Of a stretch of 64,000 nt of DNA, positions 4,501 through 36,355 are shown piece after piece. The notes below the pieces were generated by a model. That model worked only from the letters and a program-made list of their open reading frames with translations. It had not been told where the DNA came from and ran no database searches. Origin of the DNA: Jaminaea rosea (Eukaryota > Basidiomycota > Exobasidiomycetes > Microstromatales); NCBI RefSeq assembly GCF_003144245.1, contig NW_020289975.1, positions 2,685,496 through 2,749,495 of the forward strand, written 5' to 3'. The stretch's first letter is position 1, and each line of letters begins with the position of its first letter. Both the position numbers and the translations under genes were made by a program.

Positions 4501-4742
4501 CGTGGGGAGGATGGAGAGGATGCCGACGAGGATGCGCGTGGGACAGCCTCATCGCTGATTGGAAAGGTATGTGCGCTTTCGTCGAGGTCGAGGTCACCGC
4601 TGCGCATAGCAATGGAGTTGCGCAATACCTCGAGGCTGGCAAAGCTCGCCGAAGGAGAGACGGGCGCAGACACCGAAGATGTCGTCGGCATCATGGCGCG
4701 CCTTTGCCTCTGCGGCGGCGAATCCGGCGGGGATGTGGCCAT
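1563..4742 (-). CDS. EOS1: EOS1-like N-glycosylation/ER membrane protein with long disordered N-terminus
   Basis: A single 1059-residue frame starting at an ATG whose complement lies at 4740-4742. Residues 1 to about 590 are Ser/Pro/Arg-rich and probably unstructured. The folded part is roughly residues 590-740, with hydrophobic segments containing LLRNTALHM, LDFLLASLWALCTAYHAL, RWLIYYSLFPSLIRLIALQ and EAWIVIASFTAFSD. This order (a first membrane helix followed by LLRN, then three more helices) resembles the yeast ER protein Eos1, which is linked to N-glycosylation and oxidative stress tolerance. After a second disordered, acidic stretch and a run of nine arginines, a last hydrophobic helix (APIGALAYVTLWGLLLA) ends the protein. 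Fungal Eos1 proteins are much shorter, so the flanking low-complexity regions are an expansion. The assignment rests on the membrane core only. Confidence 0.68.
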   Translation of the reverse strand: MATSPPDSPPQRQRRAMMPTTSSVSAPVSPSASFASLEVLRNSIAMRSGDLDLDESAHTFPISDEAVPRASSSASSPSSPRLSMSSSSTPRGLRRPKSRTSIDRRIRSESTSSSPASPSSALPMISPLSPLSMTNLPSSSLFPHSSERRLSPFHDFRGTGFTPATTPPAMESPRLSPLETGSWPAPVRAAAGGSSAGSGSLSSSASARPSGSRSHSGRQQQHSSSRNRLRSSSDVAGGSAPGSRRNSGHFSSVATSSSSRRRTRHRSNSGASLTSSQGFPESDASDTGEEGDVEVGAGEGTGIRCNGNARPVRPGRTHSSPHLHFQSASLPIGLPSSSTGNHTYDGAWQTMVMDAAQRSPVGYFGISPSGGEGGISPGDPRLWQLHAAALGAAAGLDTAVNGLSDAASPHHMPADVREMLPPPPPYQANDADFPPPRPANAVDGASINAQAAADMDDDDGLAFETRRNRGHSASASVPLQQHGVAPSSAIGEARRRISTTPAPPTRAQAPDAEEAAQPPAWQPKSDTEGEEANEVSHSRTTSSTRSRRERRPPTRSEGRSTANDHRRRLPATSSRRVTEVSADKDDDSDDDGFSPWLLRLLLHPLRMLAAVPGFVGTFWLLRNTALHMSRSTPRGSLLQKGRLLNVAEYPHARATCGLDFLLASLWALCTAYHALSLTTLLLRRWLIYYSLFPSLIRLIALQAICWPLVRLTIFVAGPDRPVEAWIVIASFTAFSDVVARWVTSNIADAPTQRAPPSGGSTRNGRMQGSSSRASALHTPTVGSSRSRASSRERTPASTLAGGESGPAIRPSRPTYTPGRVRAGQRFWRAIMGSAPFDSSTSDEESGDEDEGPVDEGALLAAEERQQERNGVLIKTSALDSIGRSGMTNILLRRLRGMRAAGRKNTSPAREDAAATTDDGGGGVTGAEDSVLEGETTDPGLTTAGLTGLDDDDDDEDLHDSLQLQDGETPTEALRRLRLALRRRRRRRRMREKVWAVSGWGLTASAAASNRAAAVAAATMKGSWHIRSRRVFHWEVAVRRNVAPIGALAYVTLWGLLLAR

Positions 4743-6197
4743 GCCTCTCTGCGACTTTGAACTCTAGGCGCGGTAGCGAGAGGCTATCATGGATGCGATG
4801 AGAGCGGGGGCTGTGGTGGTAATGAGGGCAAGGCTGGTTGACGACGACGTGGCGTGGGTGAGAAATAGACCACGATTGCCAGGAACAGGCTAGAGATAGA
4901 GTGCCGCCGCTGCCGCCCACCGCCCGCCGCCCGTCGCCTGGATGGAGGCCGCCCACCACGCGGCAGCAACGACGCTCCAAGACTACGACGACAACGACGA
5001 CGAAGACGCTACTTTGAGCTGAGCGAACCAGGGCCGCCAAGGTGTTGATCAACTATGATCTCGACGCGACCTCGTATAAGATATTACGATAGCAGCTCAC
5101 TGATACCCGTGAGACCTGGATCCAGATTCGCCATCACCGGCAAGCCTGTTTGCACCCGTTTCCAATCTGACCTTCCCGCGACAAGCAGGAACCGTCGGCA
5201 CACTGAGACCAAGGTGTTTGCTGCTGCTGCGGGTGACAATGGCTCAATTGAAGCTAGGCTACTCAATCTCGCGAGACAGCCTCCAATAGGCTTTGTTTGA
5301 GGAAGAGCCGTGGGAGATGGAGACGGCATCGCCAAAGGCCACGCGACGAGGCACAATTCCAACACCGCGACGCCGCTGCGCGAGAAAGTCCCGATGGACG
5401 AGGTGCATCAACCTTCGCATCGCCCCCGTTTCAACGTCTACGCGACATTGAACGCGGCCATGAACCGCCCATTTACCGCCCGACTTGGTACGGCAAATCA
5501 AGGTTGCGCCTCAGAAGGCATGCAAAGTGCGAAGGCCGGGGCCCGTGGCAGCCAGCAATGGACGGCAATAGCAGCGGCTTGCTTGTTCCCTCGACCGGTC
5601 CACCGTCATCGATCACAAAGCTGCTGTGTGGAGTCCGAGGTAGCGAGCCAGATTTGGCTAGACGTTTGAATGCTGCTGCTTGCCTGAGCCGGAAACTCAA
5701 TCCAGTCTACGCCAGTTCCAGCTTGGACACGGGTTTCGGTCGGGTGACATCTGCTACTTTCCTTTCCTCACCCCACCTACTTTCCCTTTATCCTCTCCAC
5801 GCACGCACCAACGTCTGTGAAGCGGCTCATAGAGGACAATCGTCTTGACTGGTTCAAGTGATTGCCTTCCTCGCACCTTCCTCCTCCTCTCCCTCTTCAG
5901 ATACTCGAATCGCCCTCTGTCCGGGAGACAGCAGGAGCGAAACCAGCGCCTTCCAGGATAGCCTCTTTGCGGAGCTCTTGCTCAGGCCGAGCAGCCTTTC
6001 AACATTGCTCTAGTCTTCACGGCTTCTATACGCACAGAGAAGGGGTCCGTCTTCAAGCAAGCGTTCTCTGTTCGTTCCCTCTCAAGGCGTCAATCATCGA
6101 CAAAGGACTTCAGTGGCCGGCCACCTTCGATCGTCCTCGTTCTATCCCCTCTTCCACCTTCCCTCCCTTACCTCTTTCCTTCACGACATCCTCCAAC
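4743..6197. promoter_or_regulatory. Divergent intergenic region between EOS1-like gene and a low-complexity protein gene
   Basis: About 1.45 kb separating two genes read away from each other, so it must hold both promoters and 5' leaders. The last 60 bases before 6198 are strongly pyrimidine-rich (TTCCACCTTCCCTCC type), as expected for a fungal transcript leader. Scattered open frames here have no protein character. No TATA box or known operator can be defended. Confidence 0.45.
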
Positions 6198-13979: not shown

Positions 13980-16847
13980 ATGATGGCAGGCTCGTCGACC
14001 ACACCCTCTGCGCACGTCCTCTTGAACCAAGATTCGAGGCCCACAGACACCAGACCGAATACGGGAGACATGGCTGCGGAAGATGAGAAGAAGAAAGTAA
14101 CGAAGGGCGATGCCGTTGACGAGGAGCTCGTGCAGGCCAAGCGTGAGGACGCTGATGTTGAGAAGCCCAGCGTCACCTCCGAGGAGCATGCAATGGACGG
14201 CGGGCACTTCGCAAGCAGACCCACACAGTTTGACCGCAATGGCGACCCCATCATCAACACGGGATACGACGTCTCACGCTACCTCATCTCGCTGCGAGAC
14301 GATGGAGATGAGGCGCTCACGCTGCGTTCCTGGGTGCTTGGCATCCTCCTCGGGCTCGCGAATAATCTACTAGGCGTGCGTTAGTTACAGAGCCCTATCA
14401 CGTCCAGTTGTTCACGGACATTTTTGACACCTTCGACACTCCGCGACAGGCACTGTTCAAAGCCAAGCCCACTTCGGCATCATTCACGGACATCTTTAAT
14501 ATGCTGCTGCTCTACATCATGGGCTGCACCTGGGCCTTTGTCCTTCCAACCGCCGAATCGTTCCACCAAGAAGGCAAGGCGTGGGACAATATTCGTCGCG
14601 TCATACGCGTTGTCAACCCGTCCAAGACATTCGGTCTCAAAGAGCACGCCATCTCTCTGATCATCGCCTCAATTGGATTCCTCGGCGGATACGCCGTCGA
14701 CGCCCTCGCCACGGCTAAGCTCTTCTTCAATGCTCACCTCAATCCGGCGACGGTGATCCTCGGGCTTTTCTCACTGTCGACAATTGGCCTGGGCCTCGTT
14801 GGCGTTCTCGCCCCAGCCATTGTCTATCCCAGCGAGCTGGTCTACTGGAATGGCATCCCAACCTGCCACGGGTTCCAGGCCCTTCACTACTCGAAGGGCG
14901 ATCAGGTTGACCGACGGCGCAAGACGTTTGGCTGGTGTCTTCTAGCCGCCTTTACGTGGGAATTCGTCCCTGCCTATATGGCGCCCTGGCTGAACGGTAT
15001 CAGTATCCCCTGCCTGGCGTCCATGCACGCCTCGGAAAACAGGCGCAAGACGATCAGCCGCATCTTTGGAGGAGCTAGCGCAAATCAGGGGCTGGGCCTC
15101 TTCAGCATCTCCCTAGACCCGCAGTACGTGCCATTTTCTACATTCGCGGGCTCGCCGACCAAGTTCCTCATCCCCTACTTCTCCGGCGCAATTCTGGGCG
15201 CGTTCATCCTCATTGCACTCTACCAGACCAACGTGTGGAATGCCAAGGCCTACCCCTTTATGAGCTCAACCCTTTACACGGCCACGGGAGACGCGTGGGA
15301 CCAGAATGCAGTCTTTGATCCGCAATACAGGCTGAACGAGACCGGTCTGGCCGAGCAAGGCCTGCCGCGCATGGCAGTCAGCGAGGCTTTCTCCATCAAG
15401 ACAACTGCTCTCGGCTTAGGCGCTCTCATCGCTCATGTGCTCCTATTCCTGTCCAAGACGGTCATTGAGGACTTTCGCCGCGTCAGGAATGGCTCGCTGG
15501 ACGACCCACACTACCAGGCCATGAAGAAGTACAAGGCCGTACCCCAGAAGGTCTGGCTGCTGTTCATGGCGCTCGGCGTTCCTGCAGCCTTTGTGACCAT
15601 CTACGTAGGGCACACCACCCTTCCTTGGTGGGGATTGGTCGTAGCCTTGGTCTTCGGAGTTTTGATGACGCCCATCTCTCTGAGCATATACGGACGCTTC
15701 GGTTCGGCAGTGCCGACGATGATGATAAGCAAGATGATCTCCGGAGCCTGCCACCCTGATCACCCTGTGGCCAATCTGTGGTTCGCTCTATACTCACACA
15801 ACATCGTTGAAGTGTCGGGTACCGTAGCTGGCTATCTCAAGCTCGGGCAGTATCTCAAGCTGCCCCCGAGGCTGAATTTGGCTGCTCAGCTCACAAGCGT
15901 CCTGCTTGGCGCCTTCACGCAATGGATCATGACAAGCTCCATCATCGATCGGCACGCGGATATCCTACGAGATCCACAAGGTGACGCCTACTGGTTTGGA
16001 GGCTTGTGGCAGGACGCAAACGTGGAAGCGACGGAGTGGAGTATGGCCTCTAGAGTCTTTGCAGTCAGCTCTGGTACCGACTATGAGTGGCTGCCGCTAG
16101 GCATCATGATTGGCGCCTGCTTCCCTCTCGCCCACTGGTTGCTCACCAAGCGCGTCAAATTCATTCGCGACTTGGGTGACTTGATCGTGAGTACGCGGGG
16201 ACGAGGGGGTGCAGAGTGCGTACCCCAACTGCAGCTGCGCGCTCACCCTTCGCCTGTCCCGCAGAACCTGCCGATCTTCCTATATTACCTGGCAACGCTC
16301 AGTGGCGGCGTAAACTCCGCGTTCTTCAGCTCCATGCTCCTAGCTTACGGTAGGTCATCGCCAGCTGCGTCTCTGCGCACGTAGTCTGATCCTCATCCCG
16401 CCCTTCACTCGCAGCCTCTCAACACTGGCTCCGCACTCATCGGCCCAAGTGGTTCATCGAGGTGCGTTGCCCTCAAGTGCCTGGCTCTCGCTCCGAATGC
16501 TGACCCCCGCCGCCTGCCGTACGCAGTTCAACTACCTTATCGCTGCTGGCGTGAGTCAGAGCCTTAAGGACAAGGTGACGTCGTCTTCCCCGACTGACCT
16601 GCCGTACTTTCCCGCGCTCTAGGTCGACGGTGGAGTTGCTATCATGGTCTTCTTGCTGGCCTTTGCGGTTCAAGGCGCAATGGGAGTAGCCCACCCTTTC
16701 CCAACTGTGAGTGCGCTCGCTTCCTCCATTGCACTCGCGTGACTCGGTCCAGCTAATCACCTCTCATGCTCCACTCTTTGCTCAAAGTGGTTTGGCAACC
16801 CTGCCGCACCGGAAGCCCCAGACCACTGCCTGCGTGGGGATGCGTGA
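13980..16847 (+). CDS. Oligopeptide transporter, OPT family (7 exons)
   Basis: Likely exons are 13980-14375, 14450-16186, 16265-16349, 16415-16461, 16527-16550, 16623-16706 and 16788-16847, giving 810 residues in frame. A hydrophilic acidic N-terminus of about 110 residues is followed by LRSWVLGILLGLANNLLG, the first membrane helix of OPT proteins, and then roughly a dozen further hydrophobic helices. The C-terminus reads HRPKWFIEFNYLIAAG, then VDGGVAIMVFLLAFAVQG, then WFGN, as in fungal oligopeptide transporters that import small peptides with protons at the plasma membrane. The second intron is 74 nt if the acceptor at 14449 is used; a closer acceptor at 14407 would give an implausible 32-nt intron. 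The 24-nt exon at 16527 is unusually small. Confidence 0.85.
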
Positions 16848-17454
16848 AGGAGAGGATGAGTTGAATGAGTGCATTACGGCGAGGTGAACCGTACAGTTTC
16901 AGAAGACAACCTTGATCTCCACCGTCTCATCCTCTGCTCTTGCCTGCTTCTCCTTTCTCACCGTCTATCGTTCCGTGCGTTTAAGAGTCCTTTCCCTAGT
17001 GATGTTGGTTGTGTTCGCGGCGCACCATTGAAATCTCCGTTACGCTTTGTTCTTCCTGTGCCTACGGCAAAACATACCGATCCTTCGGTCGAAGAAGTCG
17101 ACGCACTGCAGTGACCGCACGTTACTGCGCATCATCGACCTCTTGTCGCGTAAGGCGTCGAGACGAAATGTCCCTTTCTCAGGAGGGCGAGGTGATGAAG
17201 TTGACGACAAGAAGGAGGTGATGGTTCTGAGCTGGCGAGACGTTGGGAGAGGATGGAAGGATTTCAAAGGGAGAGCGACGCGAGATCCAGTTGTGCAGGC
17301 AGGGCTGGCCGAGCAGCAAGCGAGTCTCGCAGCGGGGGCGAGCAAATCTACCGTCGCAACTGCACCCGAAGCCAGCGCGGAAATACGAATTGCATTCTGA
17401 GATATATGTGAGCTACGACGAAACAGCAGACAGCTCGGCCACTCCCGCCTCACA
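16848..17454. other. Convergent gap with one small doubtful ORF
   Basis: About 600 bases between the OPT transporter and YPP1, which converge. A plus-strand frame with an ATG at 17221 (59 codons, to 17400) reads Ala/Gln-rich, has no family resemblance, and may be chance coding in a 3' region. I cannot support a gene here. Confidence 0.3.
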
Positions 17455-20400
17455 TCAAATCGGCACTGCCCCTTCCATCCCTCTGACGCTTTTGCTCTTC
17501 TCCAGCTCGTAAGCAAATCGCAGCGACTCTCCTGCCCTCTGTCTCCTGCCCGTCTTCATCTGCACCTGACCCAAGAAGAGCCAAGCTTCCGCACAGTCCC
17601 ATCCAGATCCGCTTGTGGTCGTGGCGACGAGAAGGCCCTCAGCAAGGGAGAGAGCGGTAAGGTCGCGCGCTGACTGGCTGGATTGGGCGTCTGCTGAAGA
17701 TTTGAAGGCGTTTTGCTTGCCGCCAACACTGATCCCTTTGGGTTGCGCATCGGCCCCAATGCTGCGGCTGCGCGTCCCATCATCGAGCGGTGTCTGATGC
17801 TGAGGGTGAGGCAGTCCTGTCCCTGCGGCGTTGACCTTTTGCACTTCCTGCGCAGCCAGCAATGCGTCCTCATGCGTGAGGAAGATCCTTGCCAAATGCA
17901 CCGCAGCAGCAACGCTCTCCGCCTCACACGCCAGCGCCTTGTACAACGAGTTGACGGCCAACCGACGATCACCGGACTCTTCACTGAGCAAAGCCAGCTG
18001 AACCCACACGTCTGACCTGCCGGGCGAGACCTTCTCCGCCTCCTGTACCGCGGCTCTCGCCTCATCGATTTTGCCGGCCCGACGGAAGGAGGCGGCAGAC
18101 ATGAGCCAGAGGGAGCAGAGGGTGGTCACCTCGCGTTTGGCTTGGTAGAGACGACGCATGTCTGCTGGTGAAGCGGTACGAGGCTCAGCGGAGGAAAGGA
18201 CTCCGCCGCCCGTGTTGGTTGAGGGGGGCATGACCGCCGGCACGCCATTGGATGAGCCATTCGTGGCCAGGAGATTTCCGCTCTTGGTGCGCTGCATCGC
18301 TGCAGGGCGATTAGCGGCACTCCCACTCAGACCGAGACCGGTAGAGTTGACGTGGTCAGCCGGCAATGCAGTCTTGCCTGGCAGGAGGGGTGCTGCGCCA
18401 CGGCTCGCAGTAGGAGGGACGTGCTGGCTGAGGGTGCGGTGGAAGAATTCAAAAGTCTCCTTCTGCGACTCCAGCGCTACCTCTGCGCCAGCAACGATCT
18501 CCTCAAGCGCATTCTGCGTCATCATGAGGGAGAGGATGGCTTCGGCTCGCTCCGTTGCGCTGGGCGGGTAGTCCACGCTGAGGAGAACGGTGCGGGCGAC
18601 AGGTTTTGATGAGTCGCGACCGTTCGGAGTGGAGAGCGGATTGGGATTCGTTGCCTGCGCATCAGCCTCATCGTCGTCCTCTGCCTCATCGAGGGCCACC
18701 TCTGCCAGCTTGAAGGCCGCCTTGTGGTCCTTTTGCGCCGAGACCAGCAGTACGAGGAGATGCCACGCCTGCACGTCGGCCGGCTCGAGTTCGATAGCCT
18801 TGCGTACCTCGACAATTGCAGGGTTCACCTCTCGCATTTGACCGAGCAGCCTGGCGAGCTGGTAGTGAGCCTCCGAAGAGTGAGGGTCGAGATCAACCGC
18901 CTCCTTTAGCATAGCCAGGGCCTCGTTCTGGAGCACGGGCAGCTTGGCAGCGCTCGGTTGACGAACCGCCAATGCGGCACGAGCCTGCCCGCTGACACGC
19001 AATGCCCGAGCCACCAATTCTCGCTGCGTCTGGCTCCCTGTAGTCAGCTTTTGATACGGGACTAGCGCAAATGCCTTGCGAGCCATCTTGTCCGCTCCCT
19101 CTGCATCGCCGAGATACTTGGCAAGTACGTGAGCGCCGTGCAGGAGCGTCGCAATGAAGGTCTGGTCGTCATCCGCGTCGAGCAGAACCTCTTCGCCAGT
19201 CTCCTTTGCCTTCTTGGAAATACCGCCTTTCCCAGCAGCGGCGCGCTTCTTCTTCTTTTCCTCCTCAGGCTTCTCTTCTTCCTCCTTCTCCTTTTGTTTG
19301 ATCTCCTCTAGGTCATACCCCTCTTCTTCCTGCTTCTTCTCGCGCAACTTGCTCTCCTCCACCAGCGCAGCAGAGCCTGCTGCATCGCCCTCGCGAGCCT
19401 TTTCGACGATGGAGACGTAGAGCTGCAGAGCCTCGCGTGCTTCGTCGTAGGCTTGGGCGGCAGTGAGAAGGGTGAAAAGGTGGCGAGAGATACGCTGAGA
19501 GTGGAATGTGAGCCGGGCTAGCGTGTAAAGGCCGTCGATGACGTCATCTGCGTGCTCCCCGCCAAGTTCCCCATTGAGCTGCCAGCTGCGGACGAGTTCG
19601 TCGGAGAGGAGTAGAGCCGAGACGTTGACCTTGCCTGCACGCGGGAACTCGCTGGAGCGCTGCACTGTGGCAGCAGCGGCGTGAGCGATGGTCTGAACCT
19701 CGTTGGACCATGAGATTGATGCCGGTCTGAGGGAGCGGTGGGCGTGCGGGCGACGCTGCGAAACCGTCCGGGACGTGATCCCCTTGGCGTCGATCCCAAT
19801 TGGCCTCTTGACTGATCCGAACTTCGGTGCTCGCTCGACTTCAAAGTCGCGAATCTTGAGACGGGATGCAACCCCAGCAACTACACTTCGCTGGTAGGCC
19901 TGAGAGCGCCAGTCGTCCGTACTCTTGGCCGGCGGAGAAGGGAGGGGCACATAGTTGCCAGCTTCGACTGCGCGGTTGAGGGTACGCAGGTAGACGCGGC
20001 TGATGGTGGTGCGCTGAGGAAGTCGGAAGTCGGCGGGCCAGCGGGCTACATGGGCTTGGTAGGCGCGCAGGGCGTTGAGACCTAGCGAGGCGTCGCCTTC
20101 CCGTACGCTGAACAAGGCGTTGCGGTACAGAGCCGTCTCCGCCCATCGTTCAATTTCATCTTCCGGCAGACCGGGCAAAGCGCTCGCTCTCTTGCCACCT
20201 CTGACCTCCTCGTGAAGCTCGATGGCGCGGGCATACCCAGCAAAGGCAAACGGGCTGTAGCCTGCGGTGGGTCGCTGCAGGTGGAGTCGCTCGTTTGCCA
20301 GGCCATAGGTGACGAAGCCGAGCAGGAAGAGAGCCGTCTGATATTGCTCGCCTTGCTCTTCTGGTCGCAGTTGCTCGGTGTTGACAGTCTGCAGGAAGCG

Positions 20401-21249
20401 AGACTCGTGGAGTAGGCTCACAGCCTCTTCGTCTTTGCCCAGTGAGACGAGCGAGTAGGCTTGGATGGCTGTGATGCCCTGCAGAGCGGCATCATGGGAG
20501 CCAGCACGCTGAGCGAGGTCCTCTAGTTGCAAAGTTGACTGCTCGAACTTGGGGCCAGACCATCCCTGTCCCTGGCGGTTCAGTGGCAGCAGCGGCGCAA
20601 AGGCCGTCTTCCCACTGCCTGGCGCAGCATCATCATGCTCGTGCGACGAGTCTGTGTAGCCCTCCTCTGCATAGAAGGCAGCGAGAGAGCTCCTGATCTC
20701 CTGCTCTGCACCGCTGACCGCTGGCGTGACTGACTGGTTGGGATTGTGCTTGGAGTACTTTCGCAGCAGCTCTGCCCAGGTGTTGTTCTTTGCCTTGCCT
20801 GCGAAGTGAAGGTTGTCCGAGCTCCAGTGTCCGCGCAGACGAGCCTTGTCGAGCTCCTTGGCATACAGCTCAGCTTTCTGCTGCTGTACGCGGCGAGGGA
20901 GGAGAATGGAGGACCAAGAGGATTGGGAGCGAGTGCGACGAAGCCGGCGCGGTGGTGGTCGAGATGACACCGAGGTGGATGAGATGGGGGAGGAGGGGCC
21001 GGCGGAAGTGTCGGATCGCGAGGCGATCAGAGTCGCACCGTATCGTTGGGGCGGTGGTGCGAGCAGCGATGATGTGCGATTGCGGGTGCGACGAGGTAAA
21101 GGCAGGGAAGCGGACGCCGATTCAGGGGTGTCAGGGCGCAGAGATGCCATTGGAGGGAGCGATGGAAAGGGAAGGGAAGATGGAAAGCGGAGCGGAGCCG
21201 TCAGCATTCTGTTGTTGCTCTCAGTTTGCGTAGATGATCGCTGCGCCAT
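17455..21249 (-). CDS. YPP1: YPP1/TTC7-like TPR protein of the PI4-kinase complex
   Basis: A single frame of 1264 residues starting at the ATG at 21249. The N-terminal 110 residues are Ser/Pro-rich. The rest is helical and contains recognisable tetratricopeptide repeats, for example NEALAMLKEAVDLDPHSSEA, AIVEVRKAIELEPADVQAW and, near the C-terminus, SDVWVQLALLSEESGDRRLA. The extreme end (AEAWLFLGQVQMKTGRRQRA, then LRFAYELEKSKSVR) is the final repeat typical of TTC7/Ypp1. In that family the protein joins Efr3 to recruit the Stt4/PI4KA phosphatidylinositol 4-kinase to the plasma membrane. A Lys/Glu-rich insert near residues 630-690 is probably a disordered loop. The family call rests on the TPR pattern and the C-terminus, and no intron is needed. 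Confidence 0.75.
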   Translation of the reverse strand: MAQRSSTQTESNNRMLTAPLRFPSSLPFPSLPPMASLRPDTPESASASLPLPRRTRNRTSSLLAPPPQRYGATLIASRSDTSAGPSSPISSTSVSSRPPPRRLRRTRSQSSWSSILLPRRVQQQKAELYAKELDKARLRGHWSSDNLHFAGKAKNNTWAELLRKYSKHNPNQSVTPAVSGAEQEIRSSLAAFYAEEGYTDSSHEHDDAAPGSGKTAFAPLLPLNRQGQGWSGPKFEQSTLQLEDLAQRAGSHDAALQGITAIQAYSLVSLGKDEEAVSLLHESRFLQTVNTEQLRPEEQGEQYQTALFLLGFVTYGLANERLHLQRPTAGYSPFAFAGYARAIELHEEVRGGKRASALPGLPEDEIERWAETALYRNALFSVREGDASLGLNALRAYQAHVARWPADFRLPQRTTISRVYLRTLNRAVEAGNYVPLPSPPAKSTDDWRSQAYQRSVVAGVASRLKIRDFEVERAPKFGSVKRPIGIDAKGITSRTVSQRRPHAHRSLRPASISWSNEVQTIAHAAAATVQRSSEFPRAGKVNVSALLLSDELVRSWQLNGELGGEHADDVIDGLYTLARLTFHSQRISRHLFTLLTAAQAYDEAREALQLYVSIVEKAREGDAAGSAALVEESKLREKKQEEEGYDLEEIKQKEKEEEEKPEEEKKKKRAAAGKGGISKKAKETGEEVLLDADDDQTFIATLLHGAHVLAKYLGDAEGADKMARKAFALVPYQKLTTGSQTQRELVARALRVSGQARAALAVRQPSAAKLPVLQNEALAMLKEAVDLDPHSSEAHYQLARLLGQMREVNPAIVEVRKAIELEPADVQAWHLLVLLVSAQKDHKAAFKLAEVALDEAEDDDEADAQATNPNPLSTPNGRDSSKPVARTVLLSVDYPPSATERAEAILSLMMTQNALEEIVAGAEVALESQKETFEFFHRTLSQHVPPTASRGAAPLLPGKTALPADHVNSTGLGLSGSAANRPAAMQRTKSGNLLATNGSSNGVPAVMPPSTNTGGGVLSSAEPRTASPADMRRLYQAKREVTTLCSLWLMSAASFRRAGKIDEARAAVQEAEKVSPGRSDVWVQLALLSEESGDRRLAVNSLYKALACEAESVAAAVHLARIFLTHEDALLAAQEVQKVNAAGTGLPHPQHQTPLDDGTRSRSIGADAQPKGISVGGKQNAFKSSADAQSSQSARDLTALSLAEGLLVATTTSGSGWDCAEAWLFLGQVQMKTGRRQRAGESLRFAYELEKSKSVRGMEGAVPI

Positions 21250-21884
21250 CTCACCTGAGCCGCCATTGTGATTTCACTTGTTCCGATGAGACTAGCGGCG
21301 AGTGGGTAGCGTCGTCCAGTCGTCGTCGTCGAGTGGAGCAGCACAGCAACACGCGGGCGAGAGGCAGCTGAGACTCAGAGGCGGAGGGAGATCTCGGGTC
21401 ACTGATACACGCTGAGATGGATGAAAAATGAGCGTGGGTGAGGGTTGATGACAACGACGACGAGATGTAGTGGGTATCGTCAGCTGAGATGGGAGTGGGT
21501 GCAATGTGGGGAAGAGGAGCTGGAGTGGGACCTGGGGACAGGCAGAGCTTCTCAGGCAGCCGTGTGCCGAGCGAACGGGCTGAGAGGCGAAGCGGGCGGG
21601 CCATCCCATCCATCGGGGCGGCCGCCTTCCTGGGCTGGATTGGCGCCCGCCAACCAGTCAATGACGAAGGCGGCAGCGGCAGCAGCAGCAGCAGCACAAC
21701 GCGAGAAAGCAGGCAGCCTCGGTCGCATCGAAGCGTGAAAGTCGAGTGCGGGGAAGAGGCAGGGCGTCACGACGAAGAAGATGATCACAGATCGAAAAGC
21801 GAGAGGCTCGAGCGATCGCCAGACAAGAGCGTTGAGATTCGCTACACTAAAACAAAAGCGAGTGAGAGCCTGGGGTGCTCGGCC
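21250..21884. promoter_or_regulatory. Upstream region of YPP1 and 3' region of SPT3
   Basis: About 635 bases lie between the YPP1 start and the SPT3 stop; both genes are on the minus strand. The part nearest YPP1 should hold its promoter. A run of CAG/GCA triplets lies at about 21673-21698. Nothing else is recognisable. Confidence 0.4.
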
Positions 21885-23746
21885 TCAGATGACCAATTGC
21901 CTCGACTTTCTCAAGCCGCCAATCGGCCCTCCCACGCTAGTACCAGTGGAGAGCATAGGCGTCGTCTTGTCCCGTTGCAAGCGTGCGAAAGCTTCGCGGA
22001 CGTGGTGGAGGAGGAGTATGGGCGTTTCTTCAACCTCGCGATTGGCGTGAGCGTGGCCATCGCCCTCGCTAGCTTCGCCTTCTTGACTATCTTGCTTCTT
22101 CGCAGTGGCTTCACCTTCGCCGCTGCTCTCTTCGCGCTCCTTCGCAGTAGCGCCCGCTTCTGCTTCGCCCTCCTTGCTCGCAGGTGGCTGGGGATGCAGA
22201 GGCGCTGGCTTCATATCCTTGACGCTCGGCAACTCCTCCATCGCTGGCGCGAAGCCGAAGAGGCCGCAGAAGGACGTAGGCTCGGCATTGCCCCCTCCAA
22301 AGGGACCTCGTGGGTATAGTGCTGCATAGTCGATTTCAGGCTTCTCCTCCTCTTCCTTCTTCTTCTTCTCTCCCTCGTTCTCTTTTCCCTTTGCGGGGCT
22401 CCCTTTGGTCTCCTTGGAGCGCATTTCCTTCGTCGGTGACGATGATGAATGCCGTGAGACGGGAATGCGAGATCGGCCCCGCCTCACGTCCGTATCTCGC
22501 TCTGATCGCGCAGTATCCTCACGCTTGATGTCCCGGCTAGCTTGCTCAGCCTCGCTCGACTTGTGTCCCCTTGACGAACTGGTTCCAGCGCCCCTTTCAC
22601 TCCCATCGCTACCCGTCTTGCGCCTCTTGACCGCACTTTCACCTCCGCCAGACGATCGTCTCCTCTTCTCCTCCCCCGCCAGCATCTTCCTCTGCTCCCT
22701 CCTCTCCTGCTCCCACGCATAGCACGCGCCAAGCGTGATCTCCCTGACAACCTCGAATGCCAGAAATCCCAAAATGTCAACAATATCGTCGTTGGGCTTG
22801 ACGTCGAGATAGTTGCTGGATGCGATGAACTCGCGAAACTTCTTAGCCTTGCGGAAGGTGAAGCTAGCAGTACGACAATCGGCGTAGTGCTCGTACTCCT
22901 CGCGGGTCATCTTCAGGGTGGCTTCGTCCGCCTCCTTGAGTCTCTTGAGACTGTCCCGCATTGCTTCTTCGTCGTCTTCGTCTAGCTCGTCGTCCATAGC
23001 AGCTACGGCGGCGGACCCCGCTGCATCAGCTCCTACTTTGCCGTCGGAATCTTCGGCTGCTGCTGTCGCCTCTGCGTTGATGGTCCTGATCGTACTGCTC
23101 GTTGCACCAGGCACGACATAGTCGGTGTATACCGAGCTGATCTCCCATGGAAGCTTGACCTTCAGCTTGCGATTGATGCCGCCTTGCGCCTTGGCCATAT
23201 CCGCATCATCTGCTCCGACGTTGTTGAGGTCGACGTCGCCTGGCCCGCCGCCGTCTTCTTTAGCATTCTTGCGAACTTCCTTCCATGAAAGGTAGGTGCG
23301 TAGACGGTTCACTTTGGCTCGGTCGTAGCGTACGAGAAAGATGAAGTCCTCGGGAGACATCGTGCGTGAGTGGCGGAGCAGTGAGATGTGACGAGCTTGC
23401 ATCGTCTGTAGGCGGGCGAGTAAGAGGAGGGTGAGCTGAGGTTAGGACGTTGACTCGCGCCGCGACCACATCGCCTTACCATCTGGATGACTTGGTTGCG
23501 CACTATGTCCTCGACTGCTCTCAGCACCTCGACAGGAGGATCCTCGACCTTGCCAAAGACGAACATCTGAGTGCGGCGAATGGCATGTAGCGTCAGTAGG
23601 AGATGCTCTGTTCCCTTGGATCGCCCGCGCCTCACCATCTGCCCAATTTCCTGCGTGTAGCGATACTGCGAGCTCCCACTCCCAGATGCTGCCGCAGAGG
23701 TGGACGACATGCCGAGAACATCGTCGTTATCGTCAGCGTCGGCCAT
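21885..23746 (-). CDS. SPT3: SAGA/TFIID-type transcription factor subunit SPT3 (3 exons)
   Basis: Exons are 23746-23636, 23566-23480 and 23405-21885, giving 572 residues. Joining them restores the histone-fold sequence of Spt3: YRYTQEIGQM, MFVFGKVEDPPVEVLRAVED, then RTMSPEDFIFLVRYDRAKVN and LRTYLSWKEVRKNAKE. The second histone fold lies near residues 250-330 (FREFIASSNYLDVKPND and ILGFLAFEVVREITLGA). Spt3 is the SAGA subunit that helps place TBP on promoters. The C-terminal 240 residues are charged and low in complexity, with a conserved-looking island (YPRGPFGG, FCGLFGFAP). The first intron is 69 nt and has no stop, so unspliced message would add 23 residues. The gene is divergent from SNF1, and 445 bases separate the two start codons. 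Confidence 0.93.
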
Positions 23747-24191
23747 TTTCTGATGAAGGAGGGCCAAGCGTGGGTGGTGGACAAAGTGGTGCCAATCAAT
23801 TCACAGCCGCGAAGCCGCCCATCCCATCCGCTCTTGCCGCCGCTTGCTTGCCCTTGCTCTCCGCTCGGACCAATTGGACCCCGTCGAGCAGCCCCGCCAG
23901 GGCTGGCTGACGACTCGCAGATTGCTCTCTGCTCCCGTTCTCACCACCACAACGTCGTCATAGCGATCTCTATTCATCCGGTCAGGGCCACGATTGCTAC
24001 GAAGTACGCAACATCAGGCACTCTCACACCTTCGGCACCTCGCTCTCGATCCTCACGTCGCACGCAGCGCAGCACACCCTGCGATTGATAAGACGTCTGA
24101 GAGGCTCTTCCTCCACTGAGCCTGGCCAGCTCTTCGTCCTTCCTTCCTCCCTTTCCTTCCCTATCTTATTACCTCCCACTGTGCCACTGCG
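23747..24191. promoter_or_regulatory. Divergent promoter of SPT3 and SNF1
   Basis: A 445-base region between two opposite start codons must carry both promoters. The 60 bases before the SNF1 ATG are pyrimidine-rich (CCTTCCTTCCTCCC type). No defined factor site can be supported by eye. Confidence 0.5.
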
Positions 24192-26889
<2,698 letters not shown>

Positions 26890-27034
26890 CGAGGAGCCAC
26901 ACATCACCATAGACGTTGGAACTGGCGCTGCGGCAGCGCATTGCGAGCGTTTCGTATTTGTCCTTCTCTTCACATCTGTCTATCGCCGGATATAGAAGGT
27001 TACGATGCTCTGACTGCGGCGTTTCTGCTTGATT

Positions 27035-28684
27035 TCATCTCCACTCCTTCTCGGATTCTACCACCTGGTCGCCCTCGCCCCACAATCCGCACTTCTCCCA
27101 AATCCCTTGGCTCAGGCCCATGCTCTGCTGTACAAAGTCATCACGCCGGTCCTTCATCTTGCCGTAGCCACCTTGGTTGCGCTGGAAGAGACGTACCCGA
27201 ACCGGCTCGATGTCCTCGCACGGATCGCGCGGGGCGCCGTATACTGAGTCAAGGCCGTCGTCGGCGACTTCGCTGCGGGCGGTGGCTGGGGCTGCTGTCG
27301 AGCCTCCTCTCCTACGGCCCCGCTCAACGACGACTTCTGTGAAAGCCCGTTCGAGCTGACGCGGTGCGTCGGCATGCTTGCCAGCGAATTCCCAATGCAA
27401 GAGGCATCGCAGATGCTCATCTTCAAGGATGGCTCGCAGCCCTAACGCGAGGTTAATAGGCTGCTGTTGCGGCGCACCTCTTCTGCTTCCGACTTGCCTA
27501 GCATTCACGGCGTCCCTCCTCCTCATCGCCTCTGCCTGCTGTGAGTTGAATGGCGGCAGACCCAGCACGAGTGTAGCATGCGTCGAGGACAGCTTGAGTC
27601 TCTCGAGAGGGCTTCTGACTAGATGACTGACCAGCCAAAGTAGTTTTGGCGCGTGCGCTGGCACGGGAAAGTGGCAATCCAGGTATTTGCAGCGCGAGAA
27701 GACGAGCATGCTGGCAAACAACGCCGGCTCCTGATTCTCGAAGAGCGGCAGCGAGAGGATGATGGACAGACTCGTGGGTCGACACCCTTTAAGTTGTCGT
27801 TTGTCCTTGCGCGAGTTGACGGCGTGTTGGGTGAGCAAATCGTCCGAAGTTCCCGTTGCAGCGGCGGCTACGGCTGCGTCTACGTCGCCATAAGGGGCGA
27901 GATGGGCGCGATGTGTCCTTGCGACTTCTGCTACGGGCTTGGTCTCGAGCTCCCGACGAAGCCACTGCGGCATCTTTTGGCGGGCACGCTCCCTCATTGC
28001 GGCGAGCTCAGCCGCCGAGTTGATGACCGCTTTCGAGCCTGTGCCATCCTCTTCCTCTTCGCTTGCATGGTCTTCCTCGTCATCGCTTCCTCGCACATCT
28101 TCAAAGTCATCCCCTTCTCCCCATGCCCACGCCGGGCCCAAAGCACCCAACCGCCTATGACGTCCCCTCACTTGCCCCGCATCCCTAAGCAATATTCGAC
28201 TTTCCGAATGCCAAAGACTCAAATGACTGATGCCCGGGCCGAGGATGTGCAACATCCTCAGGAAGCAGCTTTCCCATCCTGCGCTGGTATGGGTCAAGCG
28301 ACTGACGTCGTCTAGCGCACAAAAGACCGCATGAGTGGTCCCCACACCAGGGAATCCGGCATTGCGTTGTCGATCGTACCATTTGCGGAAGTCTCGTACG
28401 TGGCGTGGGAGGAGGAGAACTGACTGAAGATGTTCTTGGGCACAAGCATGGGTGAGCCGTGAGACGAGAAGGAGTGCTTGGAGAGTTGTGTGGGTCAGAG
28501 GAGAGGGAGAGAGGATGGGGGAGAGGTTCGGGGACAGGAGGATCTGGAGTAGCAGTTCCGGAGGCAGACGAGGCAGGGCCGCAGAAGAAGCTACTGGCCC
28601 GTTGTGGTCGTTGCCATTCGTCGTTCCATAATCCCTGCTGTCAAGGGAAGTTATCGTCTGGTCATCGTCGCCGTGCAGCGTCAT
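27035..28684 (-). CDS. F-box-like protein of unknown target
   Basis: A 549-residue frame starting at the ATG at 28684; the frame is open further upstream but without ATG. Near the N-terminus the sequence ALPRLPPELLLQILLSPNLS, followed by a Leu-rich helix (TLQALLLVSRLTHACAQ), has the LPPEL..I pattern of an F-box, which binds Skp1 in SCF ubiquitin ligases. The remainder (an acidic insert GSDDEEDHASEEEED and several Leu/His-rich helices) shows no WD40 or clear leucine-rich repeats, so the substrate-binding part is unidentified. The F-box call is from motif shape only. Confidence 0.6.
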   Translation of the reverse strand: MTLHGDDDQTITSLDSRDYGTTNGNDHNGPVASSAALPRLPPELLLQILLSPNLSPILSPSPLTHTTLQALLLVSRLTHACAQEHLQSVLLLPRHVRDFRKWYDRQRNAGFPGVGTTHAVFCALDDVSRLTHTSAGWESCFLRMLHILGPGISHLSLWHSESRILLRDAGQVRGRHRRLGALGPAWAWGEGDDFEDVRGSDDEEDHASEEEEDGTGSKAVINSAAELAAMRERARQKMPQWLRRELETKPVAEVARTHRAHLAPYGDVDAAVAAAATGTSDDLLTQHAVNSRKDKRQLKGCRPTSLSIILSLPLFENQEPALFASMLVFSRCKYLDCHFPVPAHAPKLLWLVSHLVRSPLERLKLSSTHATLVLGLPPFNSQQAEAMRRRDAVNARQVGSRRGAPQQQPINLALGLRAILEDEHLRCLLHWEFAGKHADAPRQLERAFTEVVVERGRRRGGSTAAPATARSEVADDGLDSVYGAPRDPCEDIEPVRVRLFQRNQGGYGKMKDRRDDFVQQSMGLSQGIWEKCGLWGEGDQVVESEKEWR

Positions 28685-28895
28685 ACGGCAGCGACGATGA
28701 TGGCGACGATAATGGTAATCGAGGCGAAAGGAGTGCCAGGGCTCAAAATTCGCGGCATACACAGAGACAGAGGTGGAGGCGCAATCGGGCGGCCTTCCGC
28801 TCCTCCAAGCGCGAGCCTCACGGCAAGCTTGAGATGTAACGACTCCCTACGATGGCATTATCGAGAAGTGATCGAATTAACAAGTCCATAAATGA

Positions 28896-29612
28896 TCAAT
28901 TCGCACCCCTCGCAGCCTCCAAAGCCTCCGCATCAGAGTCACTCAGGATCTCGACCGTCTCACCCTGATCCACGCCATCTTCGAGAGCCTTTCTCCCCAC
29001 TCTCACTCGCCCACCCTTCTCCCTCACCATCTCTTCCACCGTCTTTGCCTCGCCAGCATCCTTGAACCATGAGAGATGGTCGGCGATGAGGTGGCTGCAA
29101 GACGTGATGAGCAACGTAGAACGAGGCCGAGTGGCAAGCAAATATATCAGCGACCTGCCACTTTCCCCATCATTCGCTCGCTCGGCAACTCACCGATTCT
29201 TGCATTCAGGGCATTGCACAATGACGATACCCTTTTCGTAGGATCGCTTGGCAAACTCGTGCGTGGATCGATGTCCACAGCCCTCGACTGCGCAGGTAAA
29301 GGTCAGGGAGAGACGCTGCTCAATCTGCCCGATGGGGGTGCCGCTGCGAGCCTCTTCGCCGGCGCCGGCGTTGCGACGAGGCAGTGTCGCAGTGCAGAAG
29401 GCACGGCCCCTCCATTGCTGATCAAAGTGAGGAGGACGGTGTAGAGGAGGAGGAGCAGCTGTCGTGTGACCAGAGTGCCTGAACAGGGTCGAGACTGAGG
29501 GGTTCACCCTTACCGCTTTGAGGACCGATGCCGATGATGACGACGATGCTGTGCCAAGGCGTGGAATCAGAGTCCTAGTCAGACTTGCCGATGCACTAAT
29601 TGCTATTGTCAT
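28896..29612 (-). CDS. ZIM17: Mitochondrial DNL zinc-finger protein, Hsp70 escort (ZIM17/HEP1, 2 exons)
   Basis: Exons are 29612-29194 and 29094-28896, giving 205 residues. An N-terminal Ser/Thr/Arg-rich leader fits mitochondrial import. The zinc finger is LTFTCAVEGCGHRSTH, then VIVQCPECKNRHLIADHLSWF, with a CxxxxC pair and a CxxC pair. The family signature Asp-Asn-Leu appears here as Asp-His-Leu in DHLSWF. Zim17 proteins keep mitochondrial Hsp70 soluble and support matrix protein import and folding. The C-terminal part is acidic (ETVEILSDSDAEAL), which is usual for fungal members. The intron falls just before the DHL motif. Confidence 0.9.
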
Positions 29613-30389
29613 GGCTGCTAGTCGATTGGATGAAATGGTGAGTTGCTCGGATCAAAGGTGGAGTTGACCCAAAATCTGGTCTGTCTCATCGAGCGGGAAA
29701 GTCGGCAATTTCTCGGCTTCGCCCACGCGAGGACTCAAGGAATGCAAGACGCCGAGCGCGATATGCCTCGGTGCTCGAGTCCAACCCATCCTGCCTTCTT
29801 ACCGCTGCCAGCAAGCAAAGCAACAATGAGAGATGAGACTTCGCCGGGCAACGCACGATCCACCTCGCTACCGCGGCGACGACTGCAAGGCGCTCGTACG
29901 ATCGTCCTCTCTCCCCGCTGCGTAGATATCTCACCACCGATGCACGATCGCACCCGGCCGTGGGATAGGGAGCAGCGAGCATCTACTATCTACCAACGCC
30001 GATGCGATTTGGCTTACCCAGAATGGCATCGACGGACTCTTTGCACTCATTGAGAGACTGAATAAGAATGCGGCCATGTCCGCAAACTCTGCCTCTCCTT
30101 TCCCTTAGCTACGCTCACCATCCTCACCTCCCCCTCACCTTCCCTTCTCCACCGCAAGACTGCTGGTCCAGTCTTGACGAATCCGCTTTACTTCCTCTAC
30201 CTCATCATCTCTATCCGCCCTTGCTCTCACCTTTCACGACTCACCTTAGCGCCTACACACCCAGCTTGCTGGCACAAGCGCTCCTCACTGTCATTTCCTC
30301 ATCCTCTCGCTTCTAGACCGGTCTCATTTCACATACCTACCGCCGCTCTCCTCATATCCCACCTCCATCTCACGATACAGTAGCCCAAA
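29613..30389. promoter_or_regulatory. Divergent promoter region between ZIM17 and the secreted repeat protein
   Basis: About 780 bases between two opposite start codons. The segment 30085-30389 before the secreted protein is rich in C and T (CTCACCTCCCCCTCACC, then many CCTC and TCTC runs), typical of highly expressed fungal leaders. No gene with protein character is seen. Confidence 0.45.
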
Positions 30390-33300
30390 ATGTTTCGCGC
30401 CGCACACTCTCTCTATTTCTTCGTCCTCATGTCGCTCTTCATGGCGACGGCGAGCCAGGCGGCAAGCCTGCCCATACATCAGCAGGTGAGTACGGGCTAC
30501 GCTAGCAGCAGCAAAGAATTATAGCTGACGTCCCAGAACATGCTTTCCACCAGGCTGCATTTGCCATCCGCAACCCCTCAGCTCATGTCGGGCGAGCTGT
30601 GGCCTCTTTCTCTCCCGACAGTGAGTTGTCGACCCATCAATACGCCCGTCGAGGCCTGATTGGTGACCTCGTCAACGTGGTAAACGACCTCATCCACCTC
30701 AACTTCACAGGAGTCGGTGAAGAGCTCAAGAATGCTCTGGGCGACCTGACGTTCGACCGCGTAGACAATTCGACGTCGTCTTCAACCGCCTTGCCTGGAG
30801 CTTCGACCACTCCTGCCGTCCCGGGTGCGCCGCAGCGTTCCGAGTCGTCATCAATGATGACTCGCACTCAAACCTCAGTCTCCGCCGCGGCCACACCCAC
30901 CGCTGCGCTGCACGCCAGGATGCAGCGCCGCAGCCTTATCGGAGACATGATCGACCTGGTGCAGGATTTCAATGGCAACCTGACCGAGGTCGGTCAAGAC
31001 ATTAAGAACATCCTCAAGGACCTCGGCGTCACAGCTCTCGCCCGTCGCAGTGACGAGCTGGTGCAGAATTCCAAGCGCTCGCCTTCGTCTCCTGCCGAAG
31101 CCATTGCCATGCGTCGAGGGTTGGTCGATGACATCCTTGGCATTCTCAACGACACGCTCCATCTCAACCTCAACGAGGTGGCGACTGACGGCAAGGCTTT
31201 GCTGCGCAAGATTGACATCAATGTAAAGCGCAATGAGGCCTTGCCTGCCACGCAAATGCAGCGTCGTGCCCTCATCGGACACATCCTCAGCCTAGTGAAC
31301 AATTCGATCCACTTCGACTTGCCCCAGACCCTCTACGATGGCAAGAACCTCCTCCACAAGCTCGACATTAATCTTAAGCGCGACGTCAACGAGGACCATG
31401 CAGTGGCGCATGAGCGTCGTGCACTTCTCGGCCACGTCTTGAGCTTGGTCAACCATGCCATTCACTTTGACAAGAACGAGGTCGCCACAGACGGCAAGGC
31501 CTTGCCGAAAAAGATCGACATTAACCTCAAGCGCAGTATCGATGAGGCTGCCACGCCAGCTGATGCGATCCAGCGTCGTGCCCTGGTGCAGAACATCATC
31601 AACCTGGTCAATGATGCGATTCACTTCAACAAGACAGAGGCTCGCAACGATGGCAAGGCTTTGCTGCACAAGATGAACATTCATATCAACCGACGCGATG
31701 GCGATGAAGAGGCTCTTGCCCGCCGTGGTCTCGTCGACGACATCATCGGAATCGTCAATGACGTGCTGCACTTGAACATCACAGAGACCGCTGATGATGG
31801 CAAGAAGTTGCTCCACAAGCTCAACATCGACGTCAAGAAGCGCGACGAGACCCCCGGAGAGGCTCTTTCTCGCCGTGGGCTCGTGGACGACATCCGCGGC
31901 CTCATCAATGACATTCTCCACCTGAACCTTACCGAGACCGTGGATGAGGGGCGAAGCATGCTCCGTAAGATCGACATTCATGTCAAGCGCGATGGCGAAG
32001 ACGCCGACGCTATGGCCAAGCGCGGCCTCGTGGACGACATCATCGGCATCGTGAACGATGTGCTACACCTCAACCTTACCGAGACGGCCGACGACGGGAA
32101 GAAGCTCCTTCATAAGCTCAACATCGATGTACAGCGCCGCGATGATGGCCATCAGCATCCAGTGCCTAACTTTTCAGCTACGGCTACTGAGCCTTCGTCC
32201 GCTGGGACCTCGGCCCAGCCTGAGCAGACTGGCAAGTCAAAGGCCGCGAGCAAGGGCAACAAGGGCGATGACGGCGAGGAGGGTCACGACGCCGATTCGG
32301 TTGCCTCGGCTGTAGCTCAGGCGGACAGCACAAGCTCGATCTCCTCCGGCAAGCCAAAGAACAATGCTGTGCAGACGGGTGCCGCTGGCCTTGACTTCGA
32401 TCGTGGAGCGTCAATGGTCACGCACGTCGCAACTGCCAAGGCAGAGCCTACCGCTGCCTCCTCGGCAGCCCCCAGCGGATCGTCCGACTTTCCTACGCAG
32501 CCTGCCCTCTCCGCCGGTGACGCATCCTCCGCCGCCTCCTCGTCGATGAGCGCCGAGCCTTCGGCTTCCTCATCTGATGCAAAGGCTCCCACCTCCGCAG
32601 CGGCCGCAGCTGCTGCTCCTGAAGGCACTGAGGTCGTCATCATCGTCAAGGCAGAGGAGGCTTCGGCCACCAAGACATTGAGCTTCCCTGCTGCCTCGGC
32701 ATCCGCGGACGCTTCCGCTCCTGCCTCGTCATCGTCCGCAGAATCCTCGGCACCATCGGACGTGGCTAACAAGGGCTCAGCAGCGATGAAAGTTCAACCA
32801 TTCATGGGCAACGTCCGCATTTCCTCTCGTGCTGCCGCAGCCAACCCGACAACGACTCCCGCAGCCAACGCCGCCTCCGCCAGTGAGTCCGTCGAAGCCA
32901 TCACGCCTACAGGGACTTGGACTTACTTCCCCGGCGCGTTTGGCTGCCTCGATCAGGCCTCCTCATCTAAGGGCAATGGACGTCAGGCGGATGCGGAAGG
33001 GCATGAGCTGAAGAAGGGTCACTACTCGACTAGCGCGGACAAGGCTGAGCATTGGTGTACTGCGTCGGCTACTGCCAAGGCTCAGGCTTCACCCACGTCT
33101 TCCGGCAGCAGCAGCAGCAGCAAGCCCGTCTCGAGCTCTACCGCCGCCAACGCCAACGCATCTTCCTCCTCCGCACCCTCTTCTGGTCCCCTTGCTCGAC
33201 GCTCTTCCCATGGCAGTCAGCGCTCTCACGGTAAGCATGGCAAGTCGGCAAAAGCCGGGGACGAGAAGGACCGCAAGGCCAAGGCGAAAAACCAGGTTGA

Positions 33301-33400
33301 GGCGATTGCGATGGCCCAGGCGCATGCTATTCAGCAGGCTGTGATGGGTACCGAGCATGGCATGAAGCGCTGGAGCGCTTCGCAGAGGAAGGATCACTAG
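30390..33400 (+). CDS. Secreted tandem-repeat precursor with dibasic (Kex2-type) sites (2 exons)
   Basis: Exons are 30390-30485 and 30554-33400, giving 980 residues. Exon 1 is a signal peptide (MFRAAHSLYFFVLMSLFMA, cleavage likely near SQA-AS). Exon 2 holds nine imperfect repeats of about 35-50 residues between 30647 and 32140. Each begins after Arg-Arg or Lys-Arg with [GA]L[VIL]..I..[IL]VN..[IL]H[LF] and most end with DGK.LL.K[LIM][ND]I. Most repeats carry an N-glycosylation sequon (NFT, NLT, NIT or NKT) at the same place. The layout of signal peptide plus repeats bounded by KR/RR matches fungal kexin-processed precursors such as the repellent precursor Rep1 of Ustilago maydis, although the repeat sequence itself is not one I recognise. 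The C-terminal 400 residues are Ala/Ser-rich with a short WTYFPGAFGC island and a basic tail. The mature peptides and their role are inferred. Confidence 0.85.
30647..32140 (+). repeat. Nine in-frame coding repeats in the secreted precursor
   Basis: Units of roughly 105-160 bases begin near 30647, 30926, 31110, 31258, 31414, 31570, 31718, 31868 and 32015. Units 3, 7, 8 and 9 are the most alike at protein level (GLVDDI.GI.ND.LHLN). This pattern suggests partly recent duplication with older, more diverged units at the start. Confidence 0.85.
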
Positions 33401-33670: not shown

Positions 33671-36146
<2,476 letters not shown>

Positions 36147-36355
36147 GGTTGCAAAAGGATTGTTATGGAGCAGAGGCAACGTCGCAGTCAGTGCGGAGGT
36201 CGAGCAAGAATCGATCCACTTCTTCCCGTCCCTCGACTTGACTTGACTTGACTCCGCTCTCTGCGCGGCCACAGGGGAGGGCGGACTGCGAACAAATCGG
36301 TCCACACTGCGCTACGCTGCGAGACATTCTTTCCTCGCTCCCACCACCACTCAGC
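36147..36355. promoter_or_regulatory. Short divergent promoter of SPE3-LYS9 and TyrRS
   Basis: Only 209 bases separate the two start codons, so both promoters share this space. It contains three ACTTG units in tandem at 36236-36250. Both genes feed amino-acid or polyamine metabolism and translation, so joint control is possible but is not shown by the sequence. Confidence 0.5.

What the first reader, a model, noticed from the sequence alone, without database searches (positions are those of the whole stretch)
30390..33400. Nine-repeat secreted precursor with dibasic sites at every repeat boundary
The sequence shows a signal peptide, nine diverged amphipathic repeats, an Arg-Arg or Lys-Arg at nearly every junction, and an N-glycosylation sequon kept at the same position in most units. 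Known fungal kexin-processed precursors include the repellent precursor Rep1 of Ustilago maydis and several peptide precursors. The repeat sequence here does not match those I know. I infer that it is cut by Kex2 into about nine related 35-45-residue helical peptides, perhaps surface-active or signalling peptides.
Basis: partly seen in the sequence, partly recalled or inferred. Interest (0 to 1): 0.75.

Follow-up and report, generated by a model that had tools for sequence, protein, structure and literature searches.

The report
Fungal secreted multi-peptide precursor with nine repeats
This fungal gene very probably encodes one long secreted protein that is cut into about nine similar short peptides with one oily and one watery side, in the manner of the known peptides that coat the hyphae of corn smut, so it looks like a new example of a known kind of system.

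Summary
A 980-aa gene (exons 30390-30485 and 30554-33400) has a signal-peptide-like start, nine related ~36-aa units and a 419-aa Ser/Ala-rich tail. Eighteen [KR]R sites lie in the 499-aa repeat region; 0 of 20,000 shuffles reached 18. Repeat 1 has no closing site. The sequon is in register in 6 of 9 repeats.

The peptide is under strong selection: of 41 codons, R7 and R9 differ by 20 silent and only 4 residue-changing ones, three of these at or beside the cut sites. The genome has one kexin hit. Closing-site contexts fit reported Kex2 preferences well, opening sites only in part.

Best reading: a Kex2-processed repeat protein (KEP) with Rep1-like architecture, releasing amphipathic, possibly N-glycosylated peptides, perhaps a hyphal surface coat (inferred). 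No homologue was found, but no fungal collection could be searched; homology to Rep1/Hum3 is untested. New member of a known kind.

The parts
30390..33400 (+). whole gene, 980-aa secreted repeat precursor (two exons)
30390..30485 (+). exon 1, with putative signal peptide (30390-30461)
   Evidence: signal peptide by hydropathy only
30486..30553 (+). 68-bp intron, GT...AG, contains an in-frame stop
30653..30925 (+). repeat 1 and the stretch to the next dibasic (91 aa); core-like part 30653-30757; no closing dibasic
30932..31042 (+). repeat 2 core, 37 aa, RR before, RR after (31043-31048); extra KR at 31073-31078
31118..31225 (+). repeat 3 core, 36 aa, RR before and KR after
31268..31375 (+). repeat 4 core, 36 aa, RR before and KR after
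31421..31528 (+). repeat 5 core, 36 aa, RR before and KR after; no sequon
31580..31690 (+). repeat 6 core, 37 aa, RR before and RR after
31727..31837 (+). repeat 7 core, 37 aa (36 if the extra Lys is trimmed), RR before and KR after
31877..31984 (+). repeat 8 core, 36 aa, RR before and KR after
32024..32134 (+). repeat 9 core, 37 aa, KR before and RR after
32141..33397 (+). 419-aa Ser/Ala-rich C-terminal part holding the protein's only two Cys (aa 830, 867); no Pfam match over a cut-off

Best explanation
It is a Kex2-processed repeat protein (KEP). The precursor enters the secretory pathway; kexin cuts after the dibasic pairs on both sides of each core; a carboxypeptidase of the Kex1 kind trims the basic residues; eight 36-37-aa peptides, one 91-aa R1 product, small acidic spacer peptides and a large Ser/Ala-rich C-terminal fragment are released. 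The cores are amphipathic, probably helical, mostly acidic and perhaps N-glycosylated, and most likely act together as surface-active coat peptides of the hypha or cell wall, as Rep1 repellents do. Shown: the sequence architecture, selection on the core, presence of a kexin gene. Inferred: secretion, cleavage, trimming, glycosylation, helicity, surface role. About 0.85 for kexin processing into peptides (lowered from 0.88 after re-checking the opening-site context), about 0.45 for the surface-coat role given processing.
For: Dibasic excess: 18 against 5.0 in shuffles. Fixed core length (36-37 in 8 of 8 bounded cores) with pieces of 8-13 aa between; mean identity 0.52 for cores R3-R9 and 0.29 for the six spacers after R3-R8. 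Five codon pairs encode the nine opening dibasics. R7/R9: 17 identical, 20 silent and 4 residue-changing codons of 41; of the four, two are in the dibasic pairs (which stay dibasic), one just before the closing pair, one I/L in the core. dN below dS in 31 of the 33 repeat pairs with a defined dS, of 36. Site context: closings have Asp at P1' in 5 of 8, Ser in 2, Asn in 1, and an acidic or Gly P2' in 6 of 8; openings have Gly/Ala/Ser at P1' in 9 of 9 and acidic or Gly P4' in 8 of 9; Bader 2008 (PMC2515848; passages and first part of the discussion read) reports acidic or small residues over-represented at P1', P2' and P4' of sites cut by Kex2. One P_proprotein hit in the genome, with yeast kexin as best solved match, E 1.4e-123; DPAP and S10 carboxypeptidase families also hit. 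Surface role by analogy: Rep1 has amphipathic Kex2-separated repeats of 34-55 aa plus a long terminal part unlike the repeats.
Against: No peptide, transcript or mutant data. Bader 2008 found one third of selected candidate substrates uncut, and cites a Pir4 mutant in which KR/D changed to KR/A was not processed; here three of nine openings (R4-R6) have Ala at P1', and all nine have Leu at P2', which does not fit the reported preference. Five of the seven closing sites listed use the same codon pair, so codon turnover is seen mainly at openings. Helical moments are modest: shuffle fractions 0.04-0.21 for the first segment and 0.002-0.23 for the second. AlphaFold2: one core, single helix at mean pLDDT 72.9; three repeats, 38.4. 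Rep1 peptides are reported to form amyloid-like fibrils, whereas these cores look helical. R1 lacks a closing site. dN exceeds dS in R2-R4 and equals it in R2-R9. No homologue seen, so conservation of the sites between species is untested.
Confidence: 0.6

Rival explanations
1. Same processing, but the peptides are secreted signals or act on other organisms (host plant, competitors) rather than coating the hypha.
For: The functions of KEPs are largely unknown (abstract of PMC9769878), and the Hum3/Rsp1 double mutant of U. maydis is halted in planta (review table). The near-fixed R7/R9 peptide would suit a ligand.
Against: Several diverged versions of one peptide in one precursor suit bulk material better than one ligand (inference). 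The 36-mers have net charge -4 to +1, unlike cationic lytic peptides. No XA/XP Ste13 dipeptide directly follows any of the nine opening or eight closing sites; the extra KR206 is followed by Ser-Pro.
Confidence: 0.3
2. An intact secreted or wall-bound helical repeat protein; the dibasics sit in linkers but are not cut.
For: Repeats are predicted helical; one third of candidate Kex2 substrates were uncut in one study; opening-site P2' Leu does not fit the reported preference.
Against: Dibasics are kept at both ends of 8 of 9 cores while the spacers vary in length and sequence; the three-repeat model shows no confident packing (three-row alignment, weak).
Confidence: 0.12
3. A dikaritin/ustiloxin-type RiPP precursor whose cores are cyclised by UstYa-type enzymes.
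For: Shares a signal peptide and Kex2-bounded repeats with that class (abstract).
Against: Only R4 of the nine 36-mers has a Tyr; no UstYa (PF11807) hit in the own genome, but no control genome rang either; none among the 19 of 40 other window ORFs of 150 aa or more that were scanned.
Confidence: 0.03

Closest known systems
Rep1 repellent precursor of Ustilago maydis (UMAG_03924)
   Same: Secreted; amphipathic imperfect repeats of 34-55 aa separated by Kex2 sites; long terminal part unlike the repeats.
   Different: 652 aa with 12 repeats by one review, ten strongly conserved by Bader 2008, against 980 aa with nine here. Here eight cores are bounded twice with short spacers between, and eight of nine carry a sequon somewhere. 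Sequence homology not testable. The neighbouring fusion gene is UMAG_05818 in U. maydis, far in gene number from rep1, so this is probably not the rep1 locus, if gene numbers reflect order.
Hum3 of Ustilago maydis (UMAG_04433)
   Same: 17 amphipathic imperfect repeats of 31-36 aa, 14 separated by putative Kex2 motifs.
   Different: In Hum3 a hydrophobin domain follows the repeats; this protein has two Cys in all and no hydrophobin match.
KEPs in general (Le Marquer 2019 PMC6339444; Umemura 2020 PMC7329392; Vogt 2022 PMC9769878)
   Same: Signal-peptide-like start plus three or more similar fragments between Kex2 sites (criteria). Le Marquer notes longer peptides in yeast-like Basidiomycota.
   Different: I did not run their pipelines and could not open their supplementary tables, so whether this protein or an orthologue is already listed is unknown.
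Ece1 and CA0365 of Candida albicans
   Same: Bader 2008 likens both to Rep1 as precursors with Kex2-separated repeats; CA0365 has an additional internal Kex2 site in each repeat.
   Different: That paper says they resemble Rep1 without sequence homology. The cores here are acidic to about neutral. No sequence comparison was made.

Membership tests
KEP (Kex2-processed repeat protein) | signal peptide, no membrane span | tested here: inconclusive
   Hydrophobic N-terminus, 2.29 over 12 residues; best other 19-residue window 1.21; SignalP and TMHMM not available
KEP (Kex2-processed repeat protein) | at least 3 similar fragments between KR/RR sites, repeats at least 15% of the protein | tested here: met
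   eight bounded cores, 292 of 980 residues, 29.8% (criteria; the published FIMO and seed steps were not run)
KEP (Kex2-processed repeat protein) | actual cleavage by kexin | not testable with these tools
   kexin gene present; cleavage needs experiment
Rep1-type repellent | Kex2-bounded repeats of 34-55 aa followed by a long unrelated terminal part | tested here: met
   cores 36-37 aa, 419-aa tail
Rep1-type repellent | amphipathic repeats | tested here: inconclusive
   helical moments moderate, shuffle fractions 0.002-0.23
Rep1-type repellent | sequence homology to Rep1 | not testable with these tools
   no fungal sequence collection; the Rep1 papers tried are not held
Rep1-type repellent | surface-active amyloid-like fibrils on hyphae | not testable with these tools
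   needs purified peptide
Hum3 / hydrophobin | hydrophobin domain (8 Cys; Cys count recalled) | tested here: not met
   2 Cys in the whole protein, no hydrophobin Pfam match
Dikaritin RiPP precursor | UstYa (DUF3328) genes near by | tested here: inconclusive
   none among 19 of 40 other window ORFs scanned, 7 of which match no family; none in the genome search, controls silent
alpha-pheromone-type KEP | Ste13 XA/XP dipeptides directly after the Kex2 site | tested here: not met
   none after the 9 openings and 8 closings; Ser-Pro only after the extra KR206

The most novel reading that the evidence does not exclude
A repellent-like family not related by descent to Rep1 or Hum3, in which each cassette is 'opening dibasic - 36-aa amphipathic core with a central N-glycan - closing dibasic - acidic spacer', giving N-glycosylated surface-active peptides in a fungus that may lack hydrophobins altogether.
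Probability: 0.15. Interest if true: 0.6.

Novelty: new member of a known kind. Interest (0 to 1): 0.4.

Why it matters
[quoted passage not shown] A second precursor of like architecture, with exactly predicted products and strong selection on the peptide itself, would let that idea be tested by peptidomics and a single gene deletion. If the sequon is used, it would also ask how an N-glycan fits with surface activity.

Tried and rejected
These collections hold viral contigs and prokaryote genomes, so absence says nothing about fungi. Solved structures with R7-R9: one chance match, E 1.5. Pfam, whole protein: three matches under the cut-offs, best E 0.12. Own-genome paralogues: four protein queries hit this locus; other places gave only weak hits (E 0.20; 0.028, 0.21 and 0.79; none); of these only the C5 one was read and looks unrelated by eye.

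Synteny with U. maydis: the fusion gene is UMAG_05818, rep1 03924, rep4 04517, hum3 04433, so no support for a rep1 or hum3 locus; the neighbour by number, UMAG_05819, is listed as uncharacterised in the one paper found. I had thought a barwin-like domain might hide in the C-terminal part; Pfam gave no match for that 76-aa piece and the solved-structure search only chance matches, best E 0.48. Hydrophobins: no hit with two families, but no control genome rang, so absence is not shown. Fold search was not run because the models are too poor. A search for the small-subunit rRNA to place the organism failed and was not repeated. Binomial tails treat repeats as independent, which they are not; I do not rely on them. 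Paper searches. Wosten 1996, Muller 2008, Teertstra 2006 and 2009 are known here only as cited by others.

Full report
What is there. The window lies in an unnamed 16.6-Mb genome of 21 contigs. The gene has a 96-bp first exon, a 68-bp intron with an in-frame stop, and a second exon to 33400, giving 980 aa. Of 40 other window ORFs of 150 aa or more, 19 were scanned and 12 match a Pfam family, mostly housekeeping. The next gene downstream, on the minus strand, is a spermidine synthase - saccharopine dehydrogenase fusion, which a review ascribes to Basidiomycota (passages read). Nothing here fixes the sub-phylum.

The repeats. Nine units; R1-R6, R8 and R9 are 40, 33, 67, 42, 33, 54, 61 and 95% identical to R7. 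R2 to R9 have a core of 36-37 residues bounded by [KR]R on both sides; between a closing and the next opening site lie acidic pieces of 8-13 residues (net charge -1 to -4; after R2 two such pieces split by KR206). R1 opens with RR but has no closing site, so its product would be 91 residues. The repeat region holds 18 [KR]R sites; shuffles gave 5.0 on average and never 18 in 20,000; the 419-residue tail holds 2. Nine are openings, eight closings, one extra.

Selection. R7 and R9 are 75% identical in DNA. Of 41 codons including the dibasics, 17 are the same, 20 differ silently and 4 change the residue: one I/L in the core, one just before the closing pair, and one in each dibasic pair, which stays dibasic. 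The dS of this pair is undefined, which I read as saturated (Nei-Gojobori in a module flagged experimental). So the duplication looks old and the peptide nearly fixed; recent copying or gene conversion would have left the silent sites alike. Over all 36 repeat pairs dS was undefined in 3; dN was below dS in 31 of the other 33, equal in R2-R9 and higher in R2-R4. Cores R3-R9 average 52% identity, the six spacers after R3-R8 29%.

Cut-site context. Closings: Asp at P1' in 5 of 8, Ser in 2, Asn in 1; acidic or Gly at P2' in 6 of 8; acidic at P4' in 4 of 8. Openings: Gly, Ala or Ser at P1' in 9 of 9, acidic or Gly at P4' in 8 of 9, but Leu at P2' in 9 of 9. Bader 2008 reports acidic or small residues at P1', P2' and P4' of sites that Kex2 cut, and cites a Pir4 KR/D to KR/A mutant that was not processed. 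The closings fit well; the openings fit at P1' and P4' but not at P2', and three have Ala at P1'. The genome has one P_proprotein hit; the gene's best solved match is yeast kexin, E 1.4e-123. There is one DPAP hit and there are 13 S10 carboxypeptidase matches, which are exon pieces in part and not gene counts.

Physical character. Net charge of the 36-mers is -4 to +1 and the helical moments are moderate. AlphaFold2 with the nine repeats gives one helix over residues 2-31 at mean pLDDT 72.9; a three-repeat stretch gives helices at mean pLDDT 38.4, with 134 of 138 residues under 50. The sequon is in the same column in 6 of 9 repeats, earlier in R3 and R4, absent in R5. It may be a used glycosylation site or partly a helix-start signal; sequence alone cannot tell.

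How it most likely works. Secretion, kexin cutting at both ends of each core, trimming, and release of a set of related amphipathic peptides. The closest described architecture is Rep1 of U. maydis: amphipathic Kex2-separated repeats followed by a long unrelated fragment, whose peptides form fibrils at the hyphal surface (review table and passages; Bader passages). Hum3 has repeats of similar length but a hydrophobin domain that is missing here. A surface-coat role is my first choice, at about 0.45 given processing; signalling or interaction peptides are the main rival.

What was read. PMC6339444: abstract, results, pipeline section, passages. PMC7329392: abstract, detection method, section on diversity, passages. 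PMC9769878: abstract, first part of results, passages. PMC2515848: passages and first part of the discussion. PMC4617103, PMC9172201, PMC7409079, PMC5923269, PMC5082525: passages only. Others: search listings only.

Limits. No fungal sequence collection could be searched, no Rep1 or Hum3 sequence was available, supplementary KEP lists could not be opened, and I had no expression data. Whether the protein is already listed as a KEP somewhere is therefore unknown; the searches could not show that it is not.

Noticed in passing
window 33671-36311 (minus): Spermidine synthase - saccharopine dehydrogenase fusion, described as a Basidiomycota feature, next to the gene.
   Followed up: partly
G000:C12:101833-102093 (in L009): Kexin gene; by eye a signal peptide, at least one intron and a C-terminal membrane span; only P_proprotein hit in the genome.
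   Followed up: yes
own genome G000: No hydrophobin hit with either Pfam family; controls silent, so only a lead.
   Followed up: partly
window 1566-4763 (minus): ORF with an EOS1 domain, described as N-glycosylation protein.
   Followed up: no
window 14366-29651: Neighbours with Pfam matches: OPT transporter, TPR protein, TFIID-18kDa-like, SNF1-like kinase, DNL zinc finger.
   Followed up: no
window 31292-31981 (minus): 229-aa open frame antisense to the repeats; most likely a by-product of the repeat codons.
   Followed up: no
U. maydis UMAG_05819 (literature): Gene numbered next to the U. maydis fusion gene, listed as uncharacterised in a table of a salicylate study; could be an orthologue to check.
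   Followed up: partly
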